Shown here piece after piece: positions 1,693-19,311 of a stretch of DNA of 20,377 bases. Position numbers and translations under genes: made by a program. The stretch covers positions 1-20,377 of IMG/VR virus record IMGVR_UViG_3300036715_002482; one strand, given 5' to 3'. A model generated the notes under the pieces. The model did no database searches and was not told the origin of the DNA. It was given only the letters and a program-made list of their open reading frames with translations. The stretch is from a virus. How positions within the stretch are numbered: position 1 is the first letter of the stretch; every line of letters starts with the position of its first letter.

Positions 1693-3078
1693 TTACGCAT
1701 TTTCAGGTTTACCTTTGCCATTTTTCCAAATTCCTTTTTTCCATATTCCACCTTTCCATTCTCCATTTTCCCAAGTTCCATTTTCCCAAGTTCCATTTTC
1801 CCATATTCCATCTTTCCAAACACCATCTTCCCAAATTCCATCTTTCCAAATACCATTTTCCCAAGTTCCATTTTTCCAAGTTCCGTTTTTCCAAGTTCCA
1901 TTTTTCCAAGTTCCATTTTTCCATCTTCCATTCTCCCAAATACCATCTTCCCAAATACCTTTAGACCAATAACCATCTATCCAAGTTCCAGATTTGAAAA
2001 TAGGTTCGTCGTCTTTTTCAGAAAAAACAGAATCTTTAGAATATTTAGCATCTCCAAACCAAGGATATTTTTCAATAAAATAACTTGATCTTTTTACTGT
2101 ATACTTACCACTTATACTATAAAATGTATATATAATATATTTTACATTAGAGTCAATGTTTTTAATAACTTTATTGAATGTATCTTCTGTACATAAAATA
2201 AATTCTTTTTTGTCTATATTATAAACAGCATGATCAAAAGTATCTAAATAAGGCATGTATTTAGGTTTAAATTCAGAATCCATTTTAATTGTAATTGTAA
2301 AATCTTTTATTGTTTTTTTCATATCATACGCTTCTTTAATTTTATATGCTTTTTTTGCATATTCCATCATCTCTTCAGCAATTTTATTATTATTAGCATA
2401 AATACGATCTAAATACATTCCTTGATCTGTTTTCCAAAGTAATGCTCTTGCAACTATTTTATCAGTTGTTTTATTTCTTTTTATAAATAATTTAACAACT
2501 GGTTTAAATTCGTTAGCATAAACATTTATAAATTCATTTTTTTCTTTATATCTCATGCAAGATCCACCAAGACCTCCAGAAAGACATTCAAAATTTGACT
2601 CTAAATAATACTTATTTATGTCTTTACCATCAACAAGTGCATATTCATAATCTGTATCAATTTGTCCACCAGACTCTCTATAAGCATAAACTTTTCTAAC
2701 AAAAGCTTCTATGTCATTAGGTTTAATATGTATTTTTTTGTTCTTTATTTGATCCAATAAAGCTGTTATGAATTTTCCAACTTTCATTTCTTGTTTTGCT
2801 TTAGAACCATTAGGTTTTGTGTAGTGAATTTCAAAAAAATCAGATTTCTTAGGATGCACAAAAACTTCCTCTACATTTTTTATTTCACCGTCGATCTCCA
2901 TTTCACCTTTAGCACTTAATTGATCTAATAAAAACAAAGCAATTTGATTTTCATTTTGAATTTTATTAAAAATTTCTTTAACGTCTTCAGAAAAAGTTAT
3001 AGTTTGTTCATTTAAAGAATTATTTAATAAAGATTCTATTAGAACAAAAAGCTCAAATTGTTTAAAATTTAATATCAT
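1693..3078 (-). CDS. Repeat protein A: unknown N-terminal domain plus 18 Trp-rich pentapeptide repeats
   Basis: A 461-residue protein, paralogue of the gene just upstream. Residues 1-363 form a globular part containing LSGGLGGSCMRY (about 165-180), a V-x-x-LFIKRN / VARALLWKTDQGMYLDRIY segment and MPYLDTFDHAVY. I believe this arrangement recurs in phage proteins of unknown function. From residue 364 the chain is 18 perfect-length five-residue units of the form G-x-W-[KE]-[ND], followed by the tail GKGKPENA. Repeats of this period could stack as a beta-solenoid, suiting a fibre or adhesin; that is inference. It starts 13 bases after the stop of its paralogue, with an A-rich leader and no Shine-Dalgarno. 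All six frames are open across the repeats because the DNA unit is 15 bases, so the overlapping frames there are shadows. Confidence 0.85.
   Translation of the reverse strand: MILNFKQFELFVLIESLLNNSLNEQTITFSEDVKEIFNKIQNENQIALFLLDQLSAKGEMEIDGEIKNVEEVFVHPKKSDFFEIHYTKPNGSKAKQEMKVGKFITALLDQIKNKKIHIKPNDIEAFVRKVYAYRESGGQIDTDYEYALVDGKDINKYYLESNFECLSGGLGGSCMRYKEKNEFINVYANEFKPVVKLFIKRNKTTDKIVARALLWKTDQGMYLDRIYANNNKIAEEMMEYAKKAYKIKEAYDMKKTIKDFTITIKMDSEFKPKYMPYLDTFDHAVYNIDKKEFILCTEDTFNKVIKNIDSNVKYIIYTFYSISGKYTVKRSSYFIEKYPWFGDAKYSKDSVFSEKDDEPIFKSGTWIDGYWSKGIWEDGIWENGRWKNGTWKNGTWKNGTWKNGTWENGIWKDGIWEDGVWKDGIWENGTWENGTWENGEWKGGIWKKGIWKNGKGKPENA
1720..1989 (-). repeat. 15-bp coding minisatellite, 18 units (repeat protein A)
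   Basis: Imperfect 15-base tandem units, seen on the plus strand as variants of TTTTTCCAAGTTCCA. Each unit encodes one G-x-W-x-x pentapeptide. The array ends 24 coding bases before the stop codon. The central units (GTWKN, three in a row) are nearly identical at DNA level, which suggests recent unit expansion or slippage. Confidence 0.95.
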
Positions 3079-3091
3079 ATTTTATTTATTT

Positions 3092-4657
3092 TTATGCATT
3101 TTCAGGCTTACCTTTGCCATTTTTCCAAGTTCCTTTTTTCCATATTCCACCTTTCCATTCTCCATTTTCCCAAGTTCCATTTTCCCAAATACCATCTTTC
3201 CAAATTCCATCTTTCCAAGTTCCATTTTCCCAATTTCCATTTTCCCAAGTTCCATCGTCCCAAGTACCATTTTTCCAAGTTCCATTTTCCCAATTTCCAT
3301 TTCTCCAAAAACCTTTTTTCCAAGTTCCGTCTTTCCAAACACCATCTTCCCAAACTCCAATTTCCCAAGTTCCATCATCCCAAGTTCCATTTTCAAAAGT
3401 TCCATTTTTCCAAATACCATTTTTCCATTTTCCATTTCTCCAATCTCCATATTGCCATTCTCCATTTTTCCAAACACCATTTTTCCAAGTACCACTATGC
3501 CAAGTTCCATTTTCCCAAACACCATCTTCCCAAATTCCTTCACGCCAATAACCATCTATCCAAGTTCCAGATTTAAAAACAAGTTCATCTTCTTTTTCAG
3601 AAAAAACAGAATCTCTAGAATATTTAGCATTTCTAAGCCAAGGATATTTTTCAATAAAATAACTTGATCTTTTTACTGTATACTTACCATTTGTACTATC
3701 AAATATGTATTCAATATATTCTATATCAGAATCAATATCTTTAATAATTTTATTTAATGTATCTTCTGTACATAATGTAAATTCTTTTTTGTCTGTATTA
3801 TAAACAGCATGATTGAAAGTATCTAAATAAGGCATATATTCAGGTTTAAATTTAGAATCCATTTTGATTGTGATTGTAAAATCTTTTATTATTTTTTTCA
3901 TATCATACGCTTCTTTAATCTTATATGCTTTTTTTGCATATTCCATCATCTCTTCAACAATTTTATCGTCAGTAGCGTAAATACGATCTAAATACATTCC
4001 TTGATCTGTTTTCCAAAGTAGTGCTCTTGCAACTATTTTATCAGTCATTTTATTTCTTTTTATAAGTAATTTAACAAATTGCTTAAATTCGTTAGCATAA
4101 ACACTTACAAATTTATTTCTTTCCTCATATCTCATACAAGATCCACCAAGACCTCCAGAAAGACATTCAGAGTTTGACTCTAAATAATACTTATTTATGT
4201 CTTTACCATCAACTAATGCATATTCATAATCTGTATCAATTTGACCATCTGATTCTCTATAAGCATAAACTTTTCTAACAAAGGCTTCTATATCATTAGG
4301 TTTAATATGTATTTTTTTGTTCTTTATTTGATCCAATAAAGCTGTTATGAATTTTCCAACTTTCATTTCTTGTTTTGCTTTAGAACCATTAGGTTTTGTG
4401 TAGTGAATTTCAAAAAAATCAGATTTCTTAGGATGCACAAAAACTTCCTCTACATTTTTTATTTCACCGTCGATCTCCATTTCACCTTTAGCACTTAATT
4501 GGTTCAATAAAAATAAAGCGATTTGATTTTCATTTTGAATTTTATTAAAAATTTCTTTAACATCTTCAGAAAAAGTTATAGTTTGTTCATTTAAAGAATT
4601 ATTTAATAAAGATTCTATTAGAACAAAAAGCTCAAATTGTTTAAAATTAAGTATCAT
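3092..4657 (-). CDS. Repeat protein B: paralogue of A with 30 Trp-rich pentapeptide repeats
   Basis: A 521-residue protein. Its first 363 residues align without gaps to repeat protein A, with only about three differences in the first 165 residues, and more in residues about 175-350. The repeats begin at residue 364, exactly as in A, but number 30, one with Phe in place of Trp (GTFEN). The 12 extra units account for all 60 additional residues. The C-terminal tail GKGKPENA is shared. Repeats here are more varied than in A (GTWHS, GEWQY, GTWEI). A TATATATAA-type late promoter candidate lies 17-33 bases before the ATG, the only promoter-like element seen ahead of the four-gene minus-strand run to the portal. 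The role is unknown; a virion surface or fibre-associated protein is plausible from the repeats and neighbours. Confidence 0.85.
   Translation of the reverse strand: MILNFKQFELFVLIESLLNNSLNEQTITFSEDVKEIFNKIQNENQIALFLLNQLSAKGEMEIDGEIKNVEEVFVHPKKSDFFEIHYTKPNGSKAKQEMKVGKFITALLDQIKNKKIHIKPNDIEAFVRKVYAYRESDGQIDTDYEYALVDGKDINKYYLESNSECLSGGLGGSCMRYEERNKFVSVYANEFKQFVKLLIKRNKMTDKIVARALLWKTDQGMYLDRIYATDDKIVEEMMEYAKKAYKIKEAYDMKKIIKDFTITIKMDSKFKPEYMPYLDTFNHAVYNTDKKEFTLCTEDTLNKIIKDIDSDIEYIEYIFDSTNGKYTVKRSSYFIEKYPWLRNAKYSRDSVFSEKEDELVFKSGTWIDGYWREGIWEDGVWENGTWHSGTWKNGVWKNGEWQYGDWRNGKWKNGIWKNGTFENGTWDDGTWEIGVWEDGVWKDGTWKKGFWRNGNWENGTWKNGTWDDGTWENGNWENGTWKDGIWKDGIWENGTWENGEWKGGIWKKGTWKNGKGKPENA
3119..3568 (-). 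repeat. 15-bp coding minisatellite, 30 units (repeat protein B)
   Basis: Tandem 15-base units encoding G-x-W-x-x pentapeptides, the same repeat as at 1720-1989. The last few units of the two arrays (nearest the 3' end) are almost identical, while the interior units differ in kind and number. The array is in phase with the reading frame throughout, so changes in unit number never break the frame. Confidence 0.95.
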
Positions 4658-4789: not shown

Positions 4790-4921
4790 ATGTTAAAGAA
4801 AGTTGGTAGTAAAAAATTAGATTTACAAGAGATTTTTGAAGAAATAGTATCGTTGTTACATTATTATTCAATGAAATTATATTTTTCTAGAAGAAAAAAA
4901 GAAATATTTAATATATGTTAA
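4790..4921 (+). pseudogene. C-terminal remnant of an IS607-type serine recombinase (TnpA)
   Basis: A 43-codon plus-strand frame whose residues 12-37 (LQEIFEEIVSLLHYYSMKLY, then FSRRKKEIF) resemble the C-terminal end of IS607-family TnpA, where a segment like 'EDLxxIxxxFSxRLYGxRxxK' precedes the stop. The catalytic serine domain and DNA-binding MerR-like domain are absent, so it is probably a decayed fragment. Its TAA lies 5 codon-bases into TnpB: the tnpB ATG at 4915 overlaps it in another frame, the usual tnpA-tnpB arrangement in IS607. If it is not a remnant, it could be a small independent gene, but I see no Shine-Dalgarno. The likeness is from memory of the family. Confidence 0.55.
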
Positions 4922-6174
4922 CAGTTACCAGAGTAGAATCACATATATTTAAGAACAATAAAGAACTTGATAAACTTTGTTTTAAATCAAAGAATCTTTA
5001 TAATTCTGGTTTATATCTCTTTAAACAGACATTATTGAACGAGAATCATTGGTTATTCTATTCTGACTTTGTAAAACATTTTACGGGAACAGATGTTTAT
5101 AAAGAATTACCAGCTCAAGTTGCACAACAAACATTAAGAATGTTAGATAAAAATATAAAATCTTATATTAGATCTATTAAAGATTGGTCTAAAAATAAAT
5201 CTAAATATAAAGGACAACCTGCTTTACCAAAATATTTAGATAAAGAAAAAGGTAGATTTGTTTATATAAATCCTGGACAATCTATAAGTAGAAAAGATGA
5301 TACAATTACATTGTTAAAGAAAGCATTTAAATTTAAAACAAAAATACAAACAGACTGGAAAATAAACGAAGTTAGAATTGTACCAAAACTTGGTTACCAT
5401 AAAGTAGAAGTGGTTTACCAAAAACCTGTACAATTAAATGATACAAAAATAACTACAAGATTTTTAGGAATTGATTTAGGGCTTGATAATTTAATGAGTA
5501 TAACTAATATAGACACAAACAGGCCTGAAGCGTTATGTAATAAACTCCTTGAAACAGCAGGTGATATGTCAGACTTCAGCACCCTGGTCAAAGGTACTCA
5601 AATCAAGTCCTTTAATCAATTCTATAACAAACAATTAGCGCAGATTAAATCTACATTAAAAACAGTAAACAACAAACATTGGTCTAAAAAACTTTCATTA
5701 CTCACTCTAAAACGGAATCAAAAGATAGAAGATTATTTACATAAAGCAAGTCGAGCTATAATTGATTTAGCTTTACAATTTCAAATTGGAACAATTGTTA
5801 TTGGACACAATAAGGATTGGAAACAAAAAATTGAACTTGGTAAAAGAAATAATCAAAATTTTGTTGGTGTTCCATTCAACAAATTGATCCAAATGATTCA
5901 ATATAAAGCAGAAGAAGTAGATATTAAAGTTGTTGTTGTAGAGGAAAGTTATACAAGTAAAATAGACCATTTAGCAAAAGAGCCAATGAAAAAACAAGAA
6001 AATTATCTTGGTAAAAGAATCAAAAGAGGTTTGTTTCAAAGCTCAGTTGGCAAACTGATTAATGCTGATATAAATGGCGCTATAGGAATTTTAAGAAAAG
6101 TAGTTGGTGATGATTTCTTAGGAAGTCTAATCAATAGAGGTGATGTGTTTTCGCCAGTTAAATTAAGCGTTTAA
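4915..6174 (+). CDS. tnpB: TnpB, RNA-guided nuclease of an IS607/IS605-type element
   Basis: A full-length 419-residue TnpB. The N-terminal part has the usual KSKNLYNSGLY motif (about residues 24-34). The RuvC-type catalytic residues are present: D187 in LGIDLGLDNL, E343/E344 in VVVEESYTSKID, and D385 in LINADINGAIGI. The region GKRIKRGLFQSSVGKLINAD shows the subclass without a four-cysteine zinc finger. Residues about 202-225 look like an insertion relative to the form I recall, and the DNA there (near 5520-5610) is less AT-rich than its surroundings. TnpB cuts DNA guided by an RNA made from the element's 3' end and flank, aiding retention of the element. It sits on the plus strand among minus-strand genes, directly after a TnpA fragment and 54 bases before gp4. 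There are no frameshifts, so it is likely active. Confidence 0.93.
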   Translation: MLTVTRVESHIFKNNKELDKLCFKSKNLYNSGLYLFKQTLLNENHWLFYSDFVKHFTGTDVYKELPAQVAQQTLRMLDKNIKSYIRSIKDWSKNKSKYKGQPALPKYLDKEKGRFVYINPGQSISRKDDTITLLKKAFKFKTKIQTDWKINEVRIVPKLGYHKVEVVYQKPVQLNDTKITTRFLGIDLGLDNLMSITNIDTNRPEALCNKLLETAGDMSDFSTLVKGTQIKSFNQFYNKQLAQIKSTLKTVNNKHWSKKLSLLTLKRNQKIEDYLHKASRAIIDLALQFQIGTIVIGHNKDWKQKIELGKRNNQNFVGVPFNKLIQMIQYKAEEVDIKVVVVEESYTSKIDHLAKEPMKKQENYLGKRIKRGLFQSSVGKLINADINGAIGILRKVVGDDFLGSLINRGDVFSPVKLSV

Positions 6175-15676: not shown

Positions 15677-17125
15677 TTAACCTTCAGTTTCATTTAGTTC
15701 TATTTCATTTTTTTCAAGCTCAATAATATTTGCTATATCTTCTAATTCAGTTTCTAAATCATTTGATTTTGGAAGTTCAAAAACTTTTTGAATTTTTTTA
15801 TCAAGCTCTTTTATAATTTCTTTTGTAAAAACTTTATTTGTAAACAACTCTTTTGGTGATATATGTTTCTCTAAATGTTTAACCGCTATTGTTCTACCAG
15901 TTGTTGTAGGTACAAATTCACCTTTTTCTATTTTACCCCAACCAATTCCACATGTTTCCCAGTCAACATAATCATCTAAACCAACATACGGATTCATACC
16001 TTTATAAAATGAAATATGAAACTTTATAGGAATATTTGATTTTGAAAACCTTGATTTTTTAATAACAGAACGAACTACTATTCCAGTTGCTGCAGAATCA
16101 GCTGTTTCTTTTAACTGTGATTTAAATAATTCTACAATTATTGAACCATTATATGCAGGACCACCACCACCTGACATTGTATTTCCGTGTGTAAACATAT
16201 CAATAGAAGCATAAACATGATTAGTTATTATAACTGGTATATCAATTCTACCTAATTTTGAAGTACAAACTCTAAATAATTTTCTTAATTCTTTAGGTCT
16301 TGTCATATCAGCTTTATCGGAACCTGTTTGAACATCTTTTATTTCTTTATCAGTTGACAAATTAGCTAATGAATCTATAATAACTATGTATTTGTCAACT
16401 TCAACGTTTTTTGCTTTTGCTTCTTGTAATGTATCAACAAAATTTACAAGAAATGTTGAAAGTCTATTCACTGTATCAATATCATCAACATAAATCATTG
16501 ATGTCGTATCGATCCCAAAACGCTCAAACATTAAATCATCAGCAGCTTTTTCACTATCGATCCATATTATTTTATAGCCCTTTTTTTGTGCATTTTTTGC
16601 TATATTAAGACATAAAAACGTTTTACCTGTGTTATGATTTGAAAATCCACCACATAAATATCTATGATTTATATGATTAATTTCAAAATCATAAACAATA
16701 GAATCTTCTATTGTTTCTTTACTTAAAATTACTTGATTTCCTTTTTCACCAACTACAAAAGAATTTATATTTAAATTTTCAGTTTTAATAAATCCTTCAG
16801 GTGTTTCAATTAAATGGTCATAAGAGCATTTTATTGAATAATCTTTAGTTAATAACTGATACATTTTACGTTTTGGCTTTTTAAAAATTCTGTTTATTTT
16901 ATTATAGCCATCTAATGAATTTACATATATTCGTTTATCTTTATATTTTGTAAATAATTCTTCTACTTCAATCTCTATTGAGTTTTTTTCACAATGAATA
17001 TTAAATATTTTTTCAATTAGTTCATCGTCTAAATCATGTTTGTTAATATTAAAAGTTTTTTCTATTTCACTAAAATTTTTATAAAATTTTAATAACTCAT
17101 TTAATTTTTCTTCTATTGTACTCAT
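15677..17125 (-). CDS. uvsX: UvsX recombinase, C-terminal precursor: C-intein (165 aa) fused to C-extein (317 aa)
   Basis: A 482-residue precursor. Residues 1-165 are the C-terminal part of a split intein; residues 166-482 are the rest of the RecA-family recombinase, starting at TGKT, the second half of the Walker A loop. Further recombinase marks are IIWIDSEKAADDLMFERFG, Walker B YIVIIDSLANLS, ITNHVYAS with MSGGGGPAYNGS (DNA-binding loop and Gly-rich turn), and an acidic C-terminal tail (ELEKNEIELNETEG) as in UvsX/RecA. Without splicing this half lacks the P-loop glycines. The joined product would be 396 residues, against 391 for T4 UvsX. The start ATG has only a weak GTGAG upstream. UvsX carries out strand exchange in recombination and repair. 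Confidence 0.95.
   Translation of the reverse strand: MSTIEEKLNELLKFYKNFSEIEKTFNINKHDLDDELIEKIFNIHCEKNSIEIEVEELFTKYKDKRIYVNSLDGYNKINRIFKKPKRKMYQLLTKDYSIKCSYDHLIETPEGFIKTENLNINSFVVGEKGNQVILSKETIEDSIVYDFEINHINHRYLCGGFSNHNTGKTFLCLNIAKNAQKKGYKIIWIDSEKAADDLMFERFGIDTTSMIYVDDIDTVNRLSTFLVNFVDTLQEAKAKNVEVDKYIVIIDSLANLSTDKEIKDVQTGSDKADMTRPKELRKLFRVCTSKLGRIDIPVIITNHVYASIDMFTHGNTMSGGGGPAYNGSIIVELFKSQLKETADSAATGIVVRSVIKKSRFSKSNIPIKFHISFYKGMNPYVGLDDYVDWETCGIGWGKIEKGEFVPTTTGRTIAVKHLEKHISPKELFTNKVFTKEIIKELDKKIQKVFELPKSNDLETELEDIANIIELEKNEIELNETEG
16631..17125 (-). other. C-intein of the split UvsX intein (165 residues)
   Basis: Splicing motifs seen: block B as IKCSYDHLIETPEG (residues 98-111, with the usual His; Ser replaces the usual Thr of TxxH), block F as SIVYDFEINHINHRYLCGG, and block G as FSNHN with the penultimate His and terminal Asn. 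The first extein residue is Thr. Residues about 51-165 cover the remainder of a mini-intein; residues 1-50 are an extra helical, charged segment with no obvious counterpart in mini-inteins. No homing endonuclease motifs are present. Confidence 0.93.
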
Positions 17126-17158
17126 TTAAAATCTCACTTTTAAAAAATTTCTTAAAGT

Positions 17159-17482
17159 TCATTTGTGATCTTGTATAGTTTCAATTTCTTTTTCTTCGTC
17201 AAATTGAGATATGTATACTTTTATTTTTTGAGTAGGATGCAAACATCCAGATTCTCCAGCTAACAATACAGTTCTACCAGAAGGTATACCTTTTTCTAAA
17301 GAACTTGAAATTTGTGCATTTAATAATAAATTGCCTGTGCTAATCCAATCTTTAATTTTAACTCGTTCATTCGTATCTGCAATATTAATTTCCTCAACTA
17401 AATTTAATATACTTAATTTTTTCGCCAAATCATTTATTGAAAATTTGGATCCAATACTTTCTTCTATTTTCTTTTTTGCCAT
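17159..17482 (-). CDS. uvsX: UvsX recombinase, N-terminal precursor: N-extein (79 aa) fused to N-intein (28 aa)
   Basis: A 107-residue precursor. Residues 1-79 are the N-terminal part of UvsX, ending GRTVLLAGESG, the first half of Walker A (GESG followed by TGKT in the other gene). Residues 80-107 are the N-intein, starting CLHPTQKIKVY (block A with Cys1) and ending IQDHK at a TGA. AAAGGA 9-10 bases before the ATG is a good Shine-Dalgarno. The C-terminal precursor starts only 33 bases downstream, so both halves come from one message with no gene in between. A frameshift artefact is unlikely because both pieces end and start cleanly and every splicing residue is intact. Confidence 0.95.
   Translation of the reverse strand: MAKKKIEESIGSKFSINDLAKKLSILNLVEEINIADTNERVKIKDWISTGNLLLNAQISSSLEKGIPSGRTVLLAGESGCLHPTQKIKVYISQFDEEKEIETIQDHK
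17162..17245 (-). other. N-intein of the split UvsX intein (28 residues)
   Basis: Begins with the nucleophile Cys codon at 17245-17243 and contains only block A. The second half is acidic (FDEEKEIETIQD). The split is between blocks A and B, as in the rare 'atypically split' inteins such as AceL-TerL, whose N-part is about 25 residues, and unlike gp41-1 or Npu DnaE inteins, which split after block B near the C terminus. Confidence 0.93.
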
Positions 17483-18159: not shown

Positions 18160-19311
18160 TTAAAAAATTTTTTTAAATGTTATTAAATTTTCAGGTATAC
18201 TATTTTTATTAAAAAGTTTCATAAATTTTTGAATAGGTTCAACTATTAATTTATAAAACATTTTATCATAATCAAATTCAGGTGCAAATTCAATAGGAAA
18301 ATATCCATTTATAAAAGCAAAGGTTTCATAATTTCCTTTTGAGTAATAGTATTTTATTCTTGATGACTTACGTATTAACATGTACTTATTTCTAAAATTT
18401 CTATTTTTTAACAATTCACTATTATAATTTGCTGCTGCTTTTATGTGTATAGGAGTTTTACTTTCAACTATAATTTCATTTTTTTTGTGAGTAACATATT
18501 TTTCATATTCTCCTATACCAACTGACATTGAAATATCGTTAATATCTTGAAGTTTAAATTGTTTTTTAATGTTTTTTAATTTTTCAATAATTTCATTAGT
18601 TGATATATTAAAATTATTTTTAAAAAAATACTTCATCAATTCATTTAATTTATCTCTTGCAAATTTTGGGTATGTTTTATTTATAATTTCAACGCCTGCA
18701 ATTTTAAATTTCTCTAACGATTCATATACTATATCATTTGCCCATTTAATTGACAAAATATAATGATTTTTTGAAAAAAATGCAGCATATTCAGATATTG
18801 ATTTTAGTTCAAAATTATAAATACTATTTGTATTATAATTATTAGAAAATTTATCTATTTGTAATTTTATAAATTGCTTTAATCTATAATTATAAAGATT
18901 TAAAATGAATTCAATTTTTGAGTATTCAAATTTACAACTATTGATTACAGTATTAAAATCTATAAATAACGAATCAACAACACCAGCTATAATTAAATTA
19001 CGATCTATAGGTTTAACGTCAGTAACGTTCAATATTTTATGTAATTTTTTATCTTTATGCCAATAATCTAAAAAATATTTATTTATAATATTACTTGAAA
19101 ACTTTATTAATGTTTGTCCTTGTAAAGCTATTGTTTCAGCTATATCTTTATTAAAAAAATTAAAATATTTATTACCAAATACGCCATAGGAAGAAACAAG
19201 AATTCGTTTTATAGCTTTTTCTAAATTTGAAACATTATTCCTATTAGAAATTAAATTTTTTAATTCTATTTCCAGTTCTTCCTTGGTCATATTTTCATAT
19301 TCTTTATTCAA
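18160..19311 (-). CDS. 43: DNA polymerase family B, C-terminal fragment (gp43B-like)
   Basis: A 383-residue protein matching the palm-thumb end of T4/RB69 gp43. It begins in the fingers, just before motif B (KRILVSSYGVFGN, residues 35-47). Motif C is AGVVDSLFID (109-118). It continues through the KKRFAL-like segment (SKNHYILSIKWAND) to the thumb (TPIHIKAAANYN) and ends FKKIF. The exonuclease domain and motif A are absent and are not encoded next door: the gene upstream is the clamp. The usual motif B Asn is Val39, and the first Asp of the usual GDTDS is Val111; the essential second Asp (D113) is kept. The start is probably TTG at 19311, with AGGA 6-7 bases upstream inside the clamp gene; an ATG at 19290 is the alternative. 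The N-terminal half should be encoded elsewhere in the genome. Confidence 0.88.
   Translation of the reverse strand: MNKEYENMTKEELEIELKNLISNRNNVSNLEKAIKRILVSSYGVFGNKYFNFFNKDIAETIALQGQTLIKFSSNIINKYFLDYWHKDKKLHKILNVTDVKPIDRNLIIAGVVDSLFIDFNTVINSCKFEYSKIEFILNLYNYRLKQFIKLQIDKFSNNYNTNSIYNFELKSISEYAAFFSKNHYILSIKWANDIVYESLEKFKIAGVEIINKTYPKFARDKLNELMKYFFKNNFNISTNEIIEKLKNIKKQFKLQDINDISMSVGIGEYEKYVTHKKNEIIVESKTPIHIKAAANYNSELLKNRNFRNKYMLIRKSSRIKYYYSKGNYETFAFINGYFPIEFAPEFDYDKMFYKLIVEPIQKFMKLFNKNSIPENLITFKKIF

What the first reader, a model, noticed from the sequence alone, without database searches (positions are those of the whole stretch)
15677..17482. Atypically split intein interrupting the UvsX Walker A loop
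Two adjacent genes together encode UvsX. The first ends GESG plus a 28-residue N-intein (Cys1, block A). The second begins with a 165-residue C-intein (block B His, blocks F and G, HN end) followed by TGKT. Splicing would restore GESGTGKT and a 396-residue UvsX, near the T4 length of 391. The split lies between blocks A and B, which is rare; AceL-TerL is the example I know. Both halves are inactive as ATPases before splicing, so recombination would depend on trans-splicing. A very short N-intein is also of interest as a new protein-ligation pair.
Basis: partly seen in the sequence, partly recalled or inferred. Interest (0 to 1): 0.9.

Follow-up and report, generated by a model that had tools for sequence, protein, structure and literature searches.

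The report
Split intein interrupting phage recombinase UvsX
A phage's DNA-recombination enzyme is encoded as two separate proteins that almost certainly weld themselves together through a split self-splicing intein; the arrangement is real, but it belongs to a family that already includes the well-studied VidaL split intein, so it is a distant new member and not a new kind of system.

Summary
On the minus strand, UvsX is encoded by two adjacent ORFs. The first (17482-17159) ends GESG plus a 28-residue IntN. The second (17125-15677) starts with a 165-residue IntC ending HN, then TGKT. In-silico splicing gives a 396-aa UvsX that aligns without a gap at the junction to uninterrupted UvsX proteins. 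An independent 54-kb record shows the same break, and the halves and the intein core evolve under strong purifying selection, so this is not an assembly error or a decayed gene. An AlphaFold2 model of the intein matches the VidaL crystal structure best.

It is not a first. VidaL, a characterised atypically split intein, sits at this same site: its IntC is identical to that of a UvsX P-loop locus found here. A viral scan gave 64 loci encoding related inteins, nearly all at this P-loop. They are contiguous, split around an EDxHD/Vsr-like endonuclease gene ("fractured gene"), or split with the endonuclease gone. The window is of the last kind, in a divergent branch (29% identity to VidaL) with a longer IntN tail and a roughly 48-residue helical IntC extension. 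Its 28-aa IntN is not exceptionally short; 15-16 aa is usual in the family. Splicing itself is untested.

The parts
17246..17482 (-). UvsX N-extein (79 aa), ends with the first half of Walker A, GESG (17257-17246)
   Evidence: PHROG 97 UvsX-like recombinase E=5.6e-9; 43-46% identity to uninterrupted UvsX N-termini
17162..17245 (-). IntN, 28 aa (CLHPTQKIKVYISQFDEEKEIETIQDHK); Cys1 and block A in the first ~13 residues; tail variable (24 aa in L002)
   Evidence: aligns with CLP.xAKVxVR IntN/contiguous inteins of relatives; pN=0 for residues 1-24
17126..17161 (-). TGA stop (17161-17159) and 33-bp spacer ending in an in-frame TAA; no significant endonuclease remnant
16982..17125 (-). N-terminal extension of IntC (residues 1-48), predicted helical, fast-evolving (pN 0.077, pS 0.26), shared by clade A only; ends in the FN[IL]HxExN motif
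   Evidence: no Pfam family
16631..16981 (-). IntC core (residues 49-165): helix alpha1, block B S-Y-D-H (His104), block F YDFEINHINHRY, block G ending His164-Asn165
   Evidence: phmmer to VidaL 6vgv E=2.2e-11; AlphaFold2 + Foldseek top hit 6vgv E=1.1e-11, rmsd 1.2; pN 0.004 / pS 0.183
15677..16630 (-). UvsX C-extein (317 aa) starting with the second half of Walker A, TGKT (16630-16619), with stop
   Evidence: Pfam RecA E=1.1e-11; PHROG 97 E=4.4e-39; 42-45% identity to uninterrupted UvsX

Best explanation
This is a naturally split class 1 intein inserted in the Walker A loop of phage UvsX (GESG^TGKT), split just after the second beta strand, as in VidaL. Shown from sequence: two co-oriented neighbouring genes, each carrying one part of UvsX fused to one part of the intein. 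Inferred: the two proteins meet, IntN completes the fold of IntC, and Cys1, the block B and F residues, the terminal His-Asn and Thr+1 drive trans-splicing. That removes 28 + 165 residues and joins GESG to TGKT, giving the 396-aa recombinase. Neither half alone holds a complete ATP-binding loop, so strand exchange and recombination-dependent replication would wait for splicing. The break probably arose by homing: an EDxHD/Vsr-like endonuclease gene entered the intein (as in the sister loci L018 and L019) and was later lost here, leaving a 33-bp spacer. The loss is inferred from relatives; the spacer itself holds no recognisable remnant.
For: Correct block residues and junction. Gap-free spliced alignment at the junction to six uninterrupted UvsX proteins. 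Phmmer match to VidaL, E=2.2e-11. AlphaFold2 model of the read-through intein with mean pLDDT 85.1 and pTM 0.79; best PDB match VidaL 6vgv, rmsd 1.2 over 119 columns, followed by gp41-1 and Mtu RecA inteins. Purifying selection against L002 on UvsX-N (pN 0, pS 0.14), IntN 1-24 (pN 0), IntC core (pN 0.004, pS 0.183) and UvsX-C (pN 0.01, pS 0.14), while the IntN tail, spacer and IntC extension are relaxed. Same site occupied in many phages, contiguous or split. IntC of UvsX locus L062 identical over 122 of 122 aligned residues to VidaL, which is known to trans-splice (PMC13014065). Endonuclease gene between the halves in the sisters L018 and L019, in PA5oct and in VidaL-type L062; endonuclease C-terminal remnants in seven short-spacer loci. 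No other UvsX found in the L002, L018 and L019 records.
Against: No splicing was measured. Identity to VidaL is only 29% over 121 residues. The block B motif is S-x-x-H rather than T-x-x-H. The IntC extension has no known family and no assigned role. The window spacer shows no significant endonuclease remnant. The related records are of unknown completeness, so a second recombinase elsewhere cannot be excluded.
Confidence: 0.88

Rival explanations
1. The intein no longer splices: the two ORFs are decaying relics and another recombinase (or the host's RecA) does the work.
For: No splicing data. IntN length differs between two near-identical phages and the tail accumulates stops. The window's PolB C-part has lost one aspartate of the YGDTDS motif, so some genes of this phage drift in unusual ways.
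Against: pN is about 0 in UvsX-N and IntN 1-24, and 0.004 in the IntC core, against pS of 0.08-0.18. All splice residues are intact. No second UvsX in the 54-kb twin record or in the 139, 211 and 238-kb relatives.
Confidence: 0.06
2. The halves are normally joined by stop-codon read-through and spliced in cis: they lie in one frame with only stops between them.
For: Same frame in the window (TGA, TAA) and in L002 (three stops). The read-through chain is predicted to fold as an intein.
Against: Two stops in the window and three in L002 must be passed. Both stop codons end other genes of the window. The second ORF has its own ATG. Most short-spacer relatives are out of frame (gaps of 29, 58, 65, 68, 91, 101, 226 and 251 bp), so the family does not depend on read-through.
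Confidence: 0.04
3. Assembly error or chimera at 17126-17161.
For: A single contig of unknown coverage.
Against: An independent 54-kb record with dozens of mostly synonymous differences has the same break. Many relatives are split at the same site.
Confidence: 0.01

Closest known systems
VidaL split intein (PDB 6vgv/6vgw; IntN 16 aa)
   Same: Same insertion site: the crystallised construct carries ESG...SGK flanks, and its IntC is identical to that of UvsX P-loop locus L062. Same split position after beta2; same fold (Foldseek top hit); Cys1 nucleophile.
   Different: 29% identity in IntC. The window has IntN of 28 aa against 16, IntC of 165 against 123 with a ~48-aa helical extension, and Thr instead of Ser at +1. 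The VidaL-type locus L062 has an endonuclease gene between the halves; the window has 33 bp.
Fractured genes with split inteins and EDxHD/Vsr endonucleases (Dassa et al. 2009, cited in PMC12350094)
   Same: Sisters L018 and L019, phage PA5oct and many relatives have a host enzyme broken by a split intein with a free-standing endonuclease between the halves.
   Different: The window itself has no endonuclease gene between the halves.
AceL-TerL and GOS-TerL atypically split inteins
   Same: Short IntN, split between blocks A and B.
   Different: Host gene TerL; split at S2, after helix alpha1 (PMC13014065). Campylobacter phage terminase inteins matched our IntC only weakly (E about 0.01).
Contiguous P-loop inteins of UvsX (Salicola phage SCTP-2, L029 and others)
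   Same: Same gene, same site, homologous intein.
   Different: One continuous ORF; splicing would be in cis.
PolB16 OarG intein
   Same: Naturally split after beta2, IntN 15 aa, IntC 168 aa (PMC10189870, PMC13014065).
   Different: DNA polymerase host gene; Ser1/Ser+1 chemistry instead of Cys1/Thr+1.

Membership tests
Class 1 inteins | Cys/Ser at position 1, block B His, C-terminal His-Asn, Cys/Ser/Thr at +1 | tested here: met
   Cys1, His104 of IntC, His164-Asn165, Thr+1
Class 1 inteins | HINT fold | tested here: met
   AlphaFold2 model, pLDDT 85.1; Foldseek top hits are all inteins
Class 1 inteins | Splicing activity | not testable with these tools
   needs co-expression of the halves
Atypically split inteins of the VidaL type (S1 split, UvsX P-loop) | Two ORFs, IntN holding block A only, split after beta2, helix alpha1 in IntC | tested here: met
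   VidaL alignment begins at the alpha1 segment
Atypically split inteins of the VidaL type (S1 split, UvsX P-loop) | Insertion between GxxG and (S/T)GK of UvsX | tested here: met
   GESG^TGKT in the window; ESG..SGK in 6vgv; L062
Fractured genes (split intein plus free-standing endonuclease between the halves) | Endonuclease gene between the halves | tested here: not met
   33-bp spacer only, no significant remnant; met in sisters L018 and L019
UvsX/RecA recombinases | RecA-type ATPase core with Walker A restored by splicing | tested here: met

The most novel reading that the evidence does not exclude
At this P-loop site, one intein lineage has repeatedly moved between contiguous, endonuclease-fractured and endonuclease-free split states, and some contiguous copies are re-fused split inteins. 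L043 and L081 keep a methionine exactly where split relatives start IntC and sit among split relatives. The window, with both halves in one frame and only stop codons between them, would be one small step from re-fusion. In its branch the IntC extension would have become an added docking or control module for IntN.
Probability: 0.3. Interest if true: 0.55.

Novelty: new member of a known kind. Interest (0 to 1): 0.38.

Why it matters
It shows that VidaL is not an isolated curiosity but one member of a widespread phage allele at the UvsX P-loop, present in a cultured Pseudomonas phage (PA5oct) and once in a PhoH-like ATPase. The family holds contiguous, fractured, decaying and endonuclease-free forms at one site, so how natural split inteins arise (and whether they re-fuse) can be tested on real intermediates. 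The window gives a distant, possibly orthogonal ligation pair, though with a longer IntN than VidaL or PolB16.

Tried and rejected
Assembly error: rejected by independent record L002. Recoding of TGA/TAA: rejected, both end other genes and L002 differs in its stops. An endonuclease remnant in the window spacer: tested in two frames against endonuclease C-termini, not significant (1878/2000 and 268/2000 shuffles as good). Pfam family for the IntC extension: none in the window and near relatives. Pfam intein models: no hit to either half; NCBIfam intein_Nterm only below its cut-off. GTDB genome scan with the IntC profile: no relative. Literature: Dassa 2009, Burton 2020, Neugebauer 2017 and the PA5oct proteomics paper are not held, so whether VidaL's UvsX origin is stated in print was not read; that VidaL was named as a UvsX intein is my recollection, and the identity with L062 is the test done here. 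No held paper combines 'split intein' and 'UvsX'. A single origin of the split state: rejected by the AU test on the intein tree (p=1.8e-4), with the caution that only 136 columns were used and the grouping was by trait.

Full report
WHAT IS THERE. The window is itself a complete IMG/VR virus record of 20,377 bp, 23% G+C. On the minus strand lie, in order, a sliding-clamp-like gene, a PolB C-terminal part, two small genes, the two UvsX ORFs, a DnaB-like (gp41-type) helicase and SbcCD-like genes (the clamp and SbcCD names are my reading of the sequences, the polymerase, RecA and helicase are Pfam hits). The first UvsX ORF (17482-17159) gives 79 residues of UvsX ending LLAGESG, then CLHPTQKIKVYISQFDEEKEIETIQDHK and TGA. 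After 33 bp in the same frame (ending TAA) the second ORF (17125-15677) begins with 165 residues ending HN, then TGKTFLCLNIAK and the rest of UvsX.

IS IT REAL. An independent 54-kb record, L002, has the same structure at 97% amino-acid identity; its IntN stops four codons earlier (24 aa). Counting changes between the two phages, non-synonymous change is absent in UvsX-N and IntN 1-24 and nearly absent in the IntC core (pN 0.004, pS 0.183), while the IntN tail, spacer and the first 48 residues of IntC are relaxed (simple Nei-Gojobori-type counts, uncorrected). Profiles built without the window or its twin score it far above shuffled sequence (97.8 against 7.6 bits for IntC; 51.0 against 7.1 for the N part, which includes 20 residues of UvsX). 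Joining the exteins in silico gives 396 aa that align to six uninterrupted UvsX proteins at 43-45% identity, with no gap at GESGTGKT.

WHAT IT IS. IntC matches the VidaL split intein in the PDB (E=2.2e-11). The chain read through its stops folds with pLDDT 85.1 and pTM 0.79, and Foldseek puts VidaL 6vgv first (E=1.1e-11, rmsd 1.2 over 119 columns), followed by gp41-1 and Mycobacterium RecA inteins. VidaL's crystal construct carries ESG and SGK as flanks and starts (C1A)LPKEAVVQIRLTKKG, and UvsX P-loop locus L062 encodes an IntC identical to VidaL over all 122 aligned residues. VidaL is therefore a UvsX P-loop intein, and the window is a distant relative (29% over 121 residues) at the same site with the same split position.

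THE FAMILY. Scans of viral contigs and phage genomes gave many inteins of this type at the UvsX P-loop. Of 49 distinct inteins, 16 are contiguous, 19 are split with a gene of about 1.1-1.5 kb between the halves, 11 are split with a spacer of 29-251 bp, and 3 are split with the N half not found. The cultured phage PA5oct is fractured: IntN 17 aa, a 477-aa gene, then IntC-UvsX, the last annotated as detected by ESI-MS/MS. Salicola phage SCTP-2 has the contiguous form. In huge-phage record LR756500 the same kind of intein sits in the P-loop of what I read as a PhoH-like ATPase (GKAG^TGKT), while its UvsX is intact. The genes between the halves share a VDFYH...TVIEFYGDFFH type motif and repeated YW..GYT..EA segments, resembling the CapR-like plus EDxHD/Vsr endonucleases described in PMC12350094; no curated Pfam family passes its cut-off. 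Short spacers in seven other loci (L033, L048, L060, L061, L075, L082, L083) keep significant remnants of the endonuclease C-terminus (0 of 500 shuffles as good), so those splits are fractured genes that lost the endonuclease; the window's 33-bp spacer does not.

PLACE OF THE WINDOW. The intein tree has two parts: clade A (window, L024 which is the same record as L002, L025 = L019, L026 = L018, and the PhoH-type locus; support 100/99) and clade B (VidaL, PA5oct, SCTP-2 and the rest). All clade A members carry an extra N-terminal segment on IntC and an IntN of 24-28 aa, against mostly 15-17 in split clade B members. The window's nearest sisters all have the endonuclease gene, so loss in the window's lineage is the simplest reading.

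MECHANISM. Shown: anatomy, conservation, fold, same-site relatives, one of which (VidaL) is known to splice. Inferred: trans-splicing in the infected cell, inactivity of unspliced halves (each has half of Walker A), and dependence of recombination on splicing. Records L002 (54 kb), L018/L021 (49 and 238 kb) and L019/L023 (139 and 211 kb) hold no second UvsX, but their completeness is unknown.

NOVELTY. New member of a known kind. What remains of interest is the distant clade with its helical IntC extension, and the family as a record of how split inteins form: the split state is not one clade (AU p=1.8e-4), and two contiguous copies (L043, L081) carry a methionine where split relatives start IntC, which hints at re-fusion but does not prove it.

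Noticed in passing
L022 3426-4890: A second UvsX intein site (TAHTYA^S) is split, and the gene between the halves is a TnpB (IS605 OrfB; Pfam Cas12f1-like_TNB E=1.9e-21) instead of a homing endonuclease. A follow-up scan found no second case (upstream genes of its loci were not all read). At the same site L018 has a DUF7487-type endonuclease gene.
   Followed up: partly
window 18160-19311 (-): PolB C-terminal part as a separate ORF, also separate in L018, L019 and L022. Its motif C reads AGVVDS (L002: AGIVDS) where L018, L019 and L022 have DTD, so the first aspartate is lost.
   Followed up: no
L022 6182-8372: gp41-type helicase also broken at its P-loop (GETKIGK^S) by another atypically split intein (IntN 32 aa, CASKNTKIKIRNKKTGEIREMTMEEFHTLNKK), with a small ORF between the halves. 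L022 PolB carries an intein at YGDTD.
   Followed up: no
L036 2767-6029 (LR756500): A VidaL-type split intein with an endonuclease gene between the halves, in the P-loop of a PhoH-like ATPase: a jump of the allele to another P-loop gene.
   Followed up: partly
window 4915-6174 (+): TnpB-like gene (OrfB_IS605 E=1.2e-13, TNB domain E=6.4e-11) on the opposite strand to most genes.
   Followed up: no
window 1693-3078 and 3092-4657 (-): Two tandem, closely similar paralogues ending in long WxNGxWxNG repeats that differ in repeat number.
   Followed up: no
L043 2019-2438 and L081 4001-4420: Contiguous UvsX P-loop inteins with an internal Met exactly where split relatives start IntC (MYLEKEV, MEIKEVTV): candidate re-fused split inteins.
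   Followed up: partly
L048 3687-3990: Endonuclease caught in decay: a 251-bp spacer keeps its C-terminal ~85 residues, very close to the intact gene of L049.
   Followed up: yes
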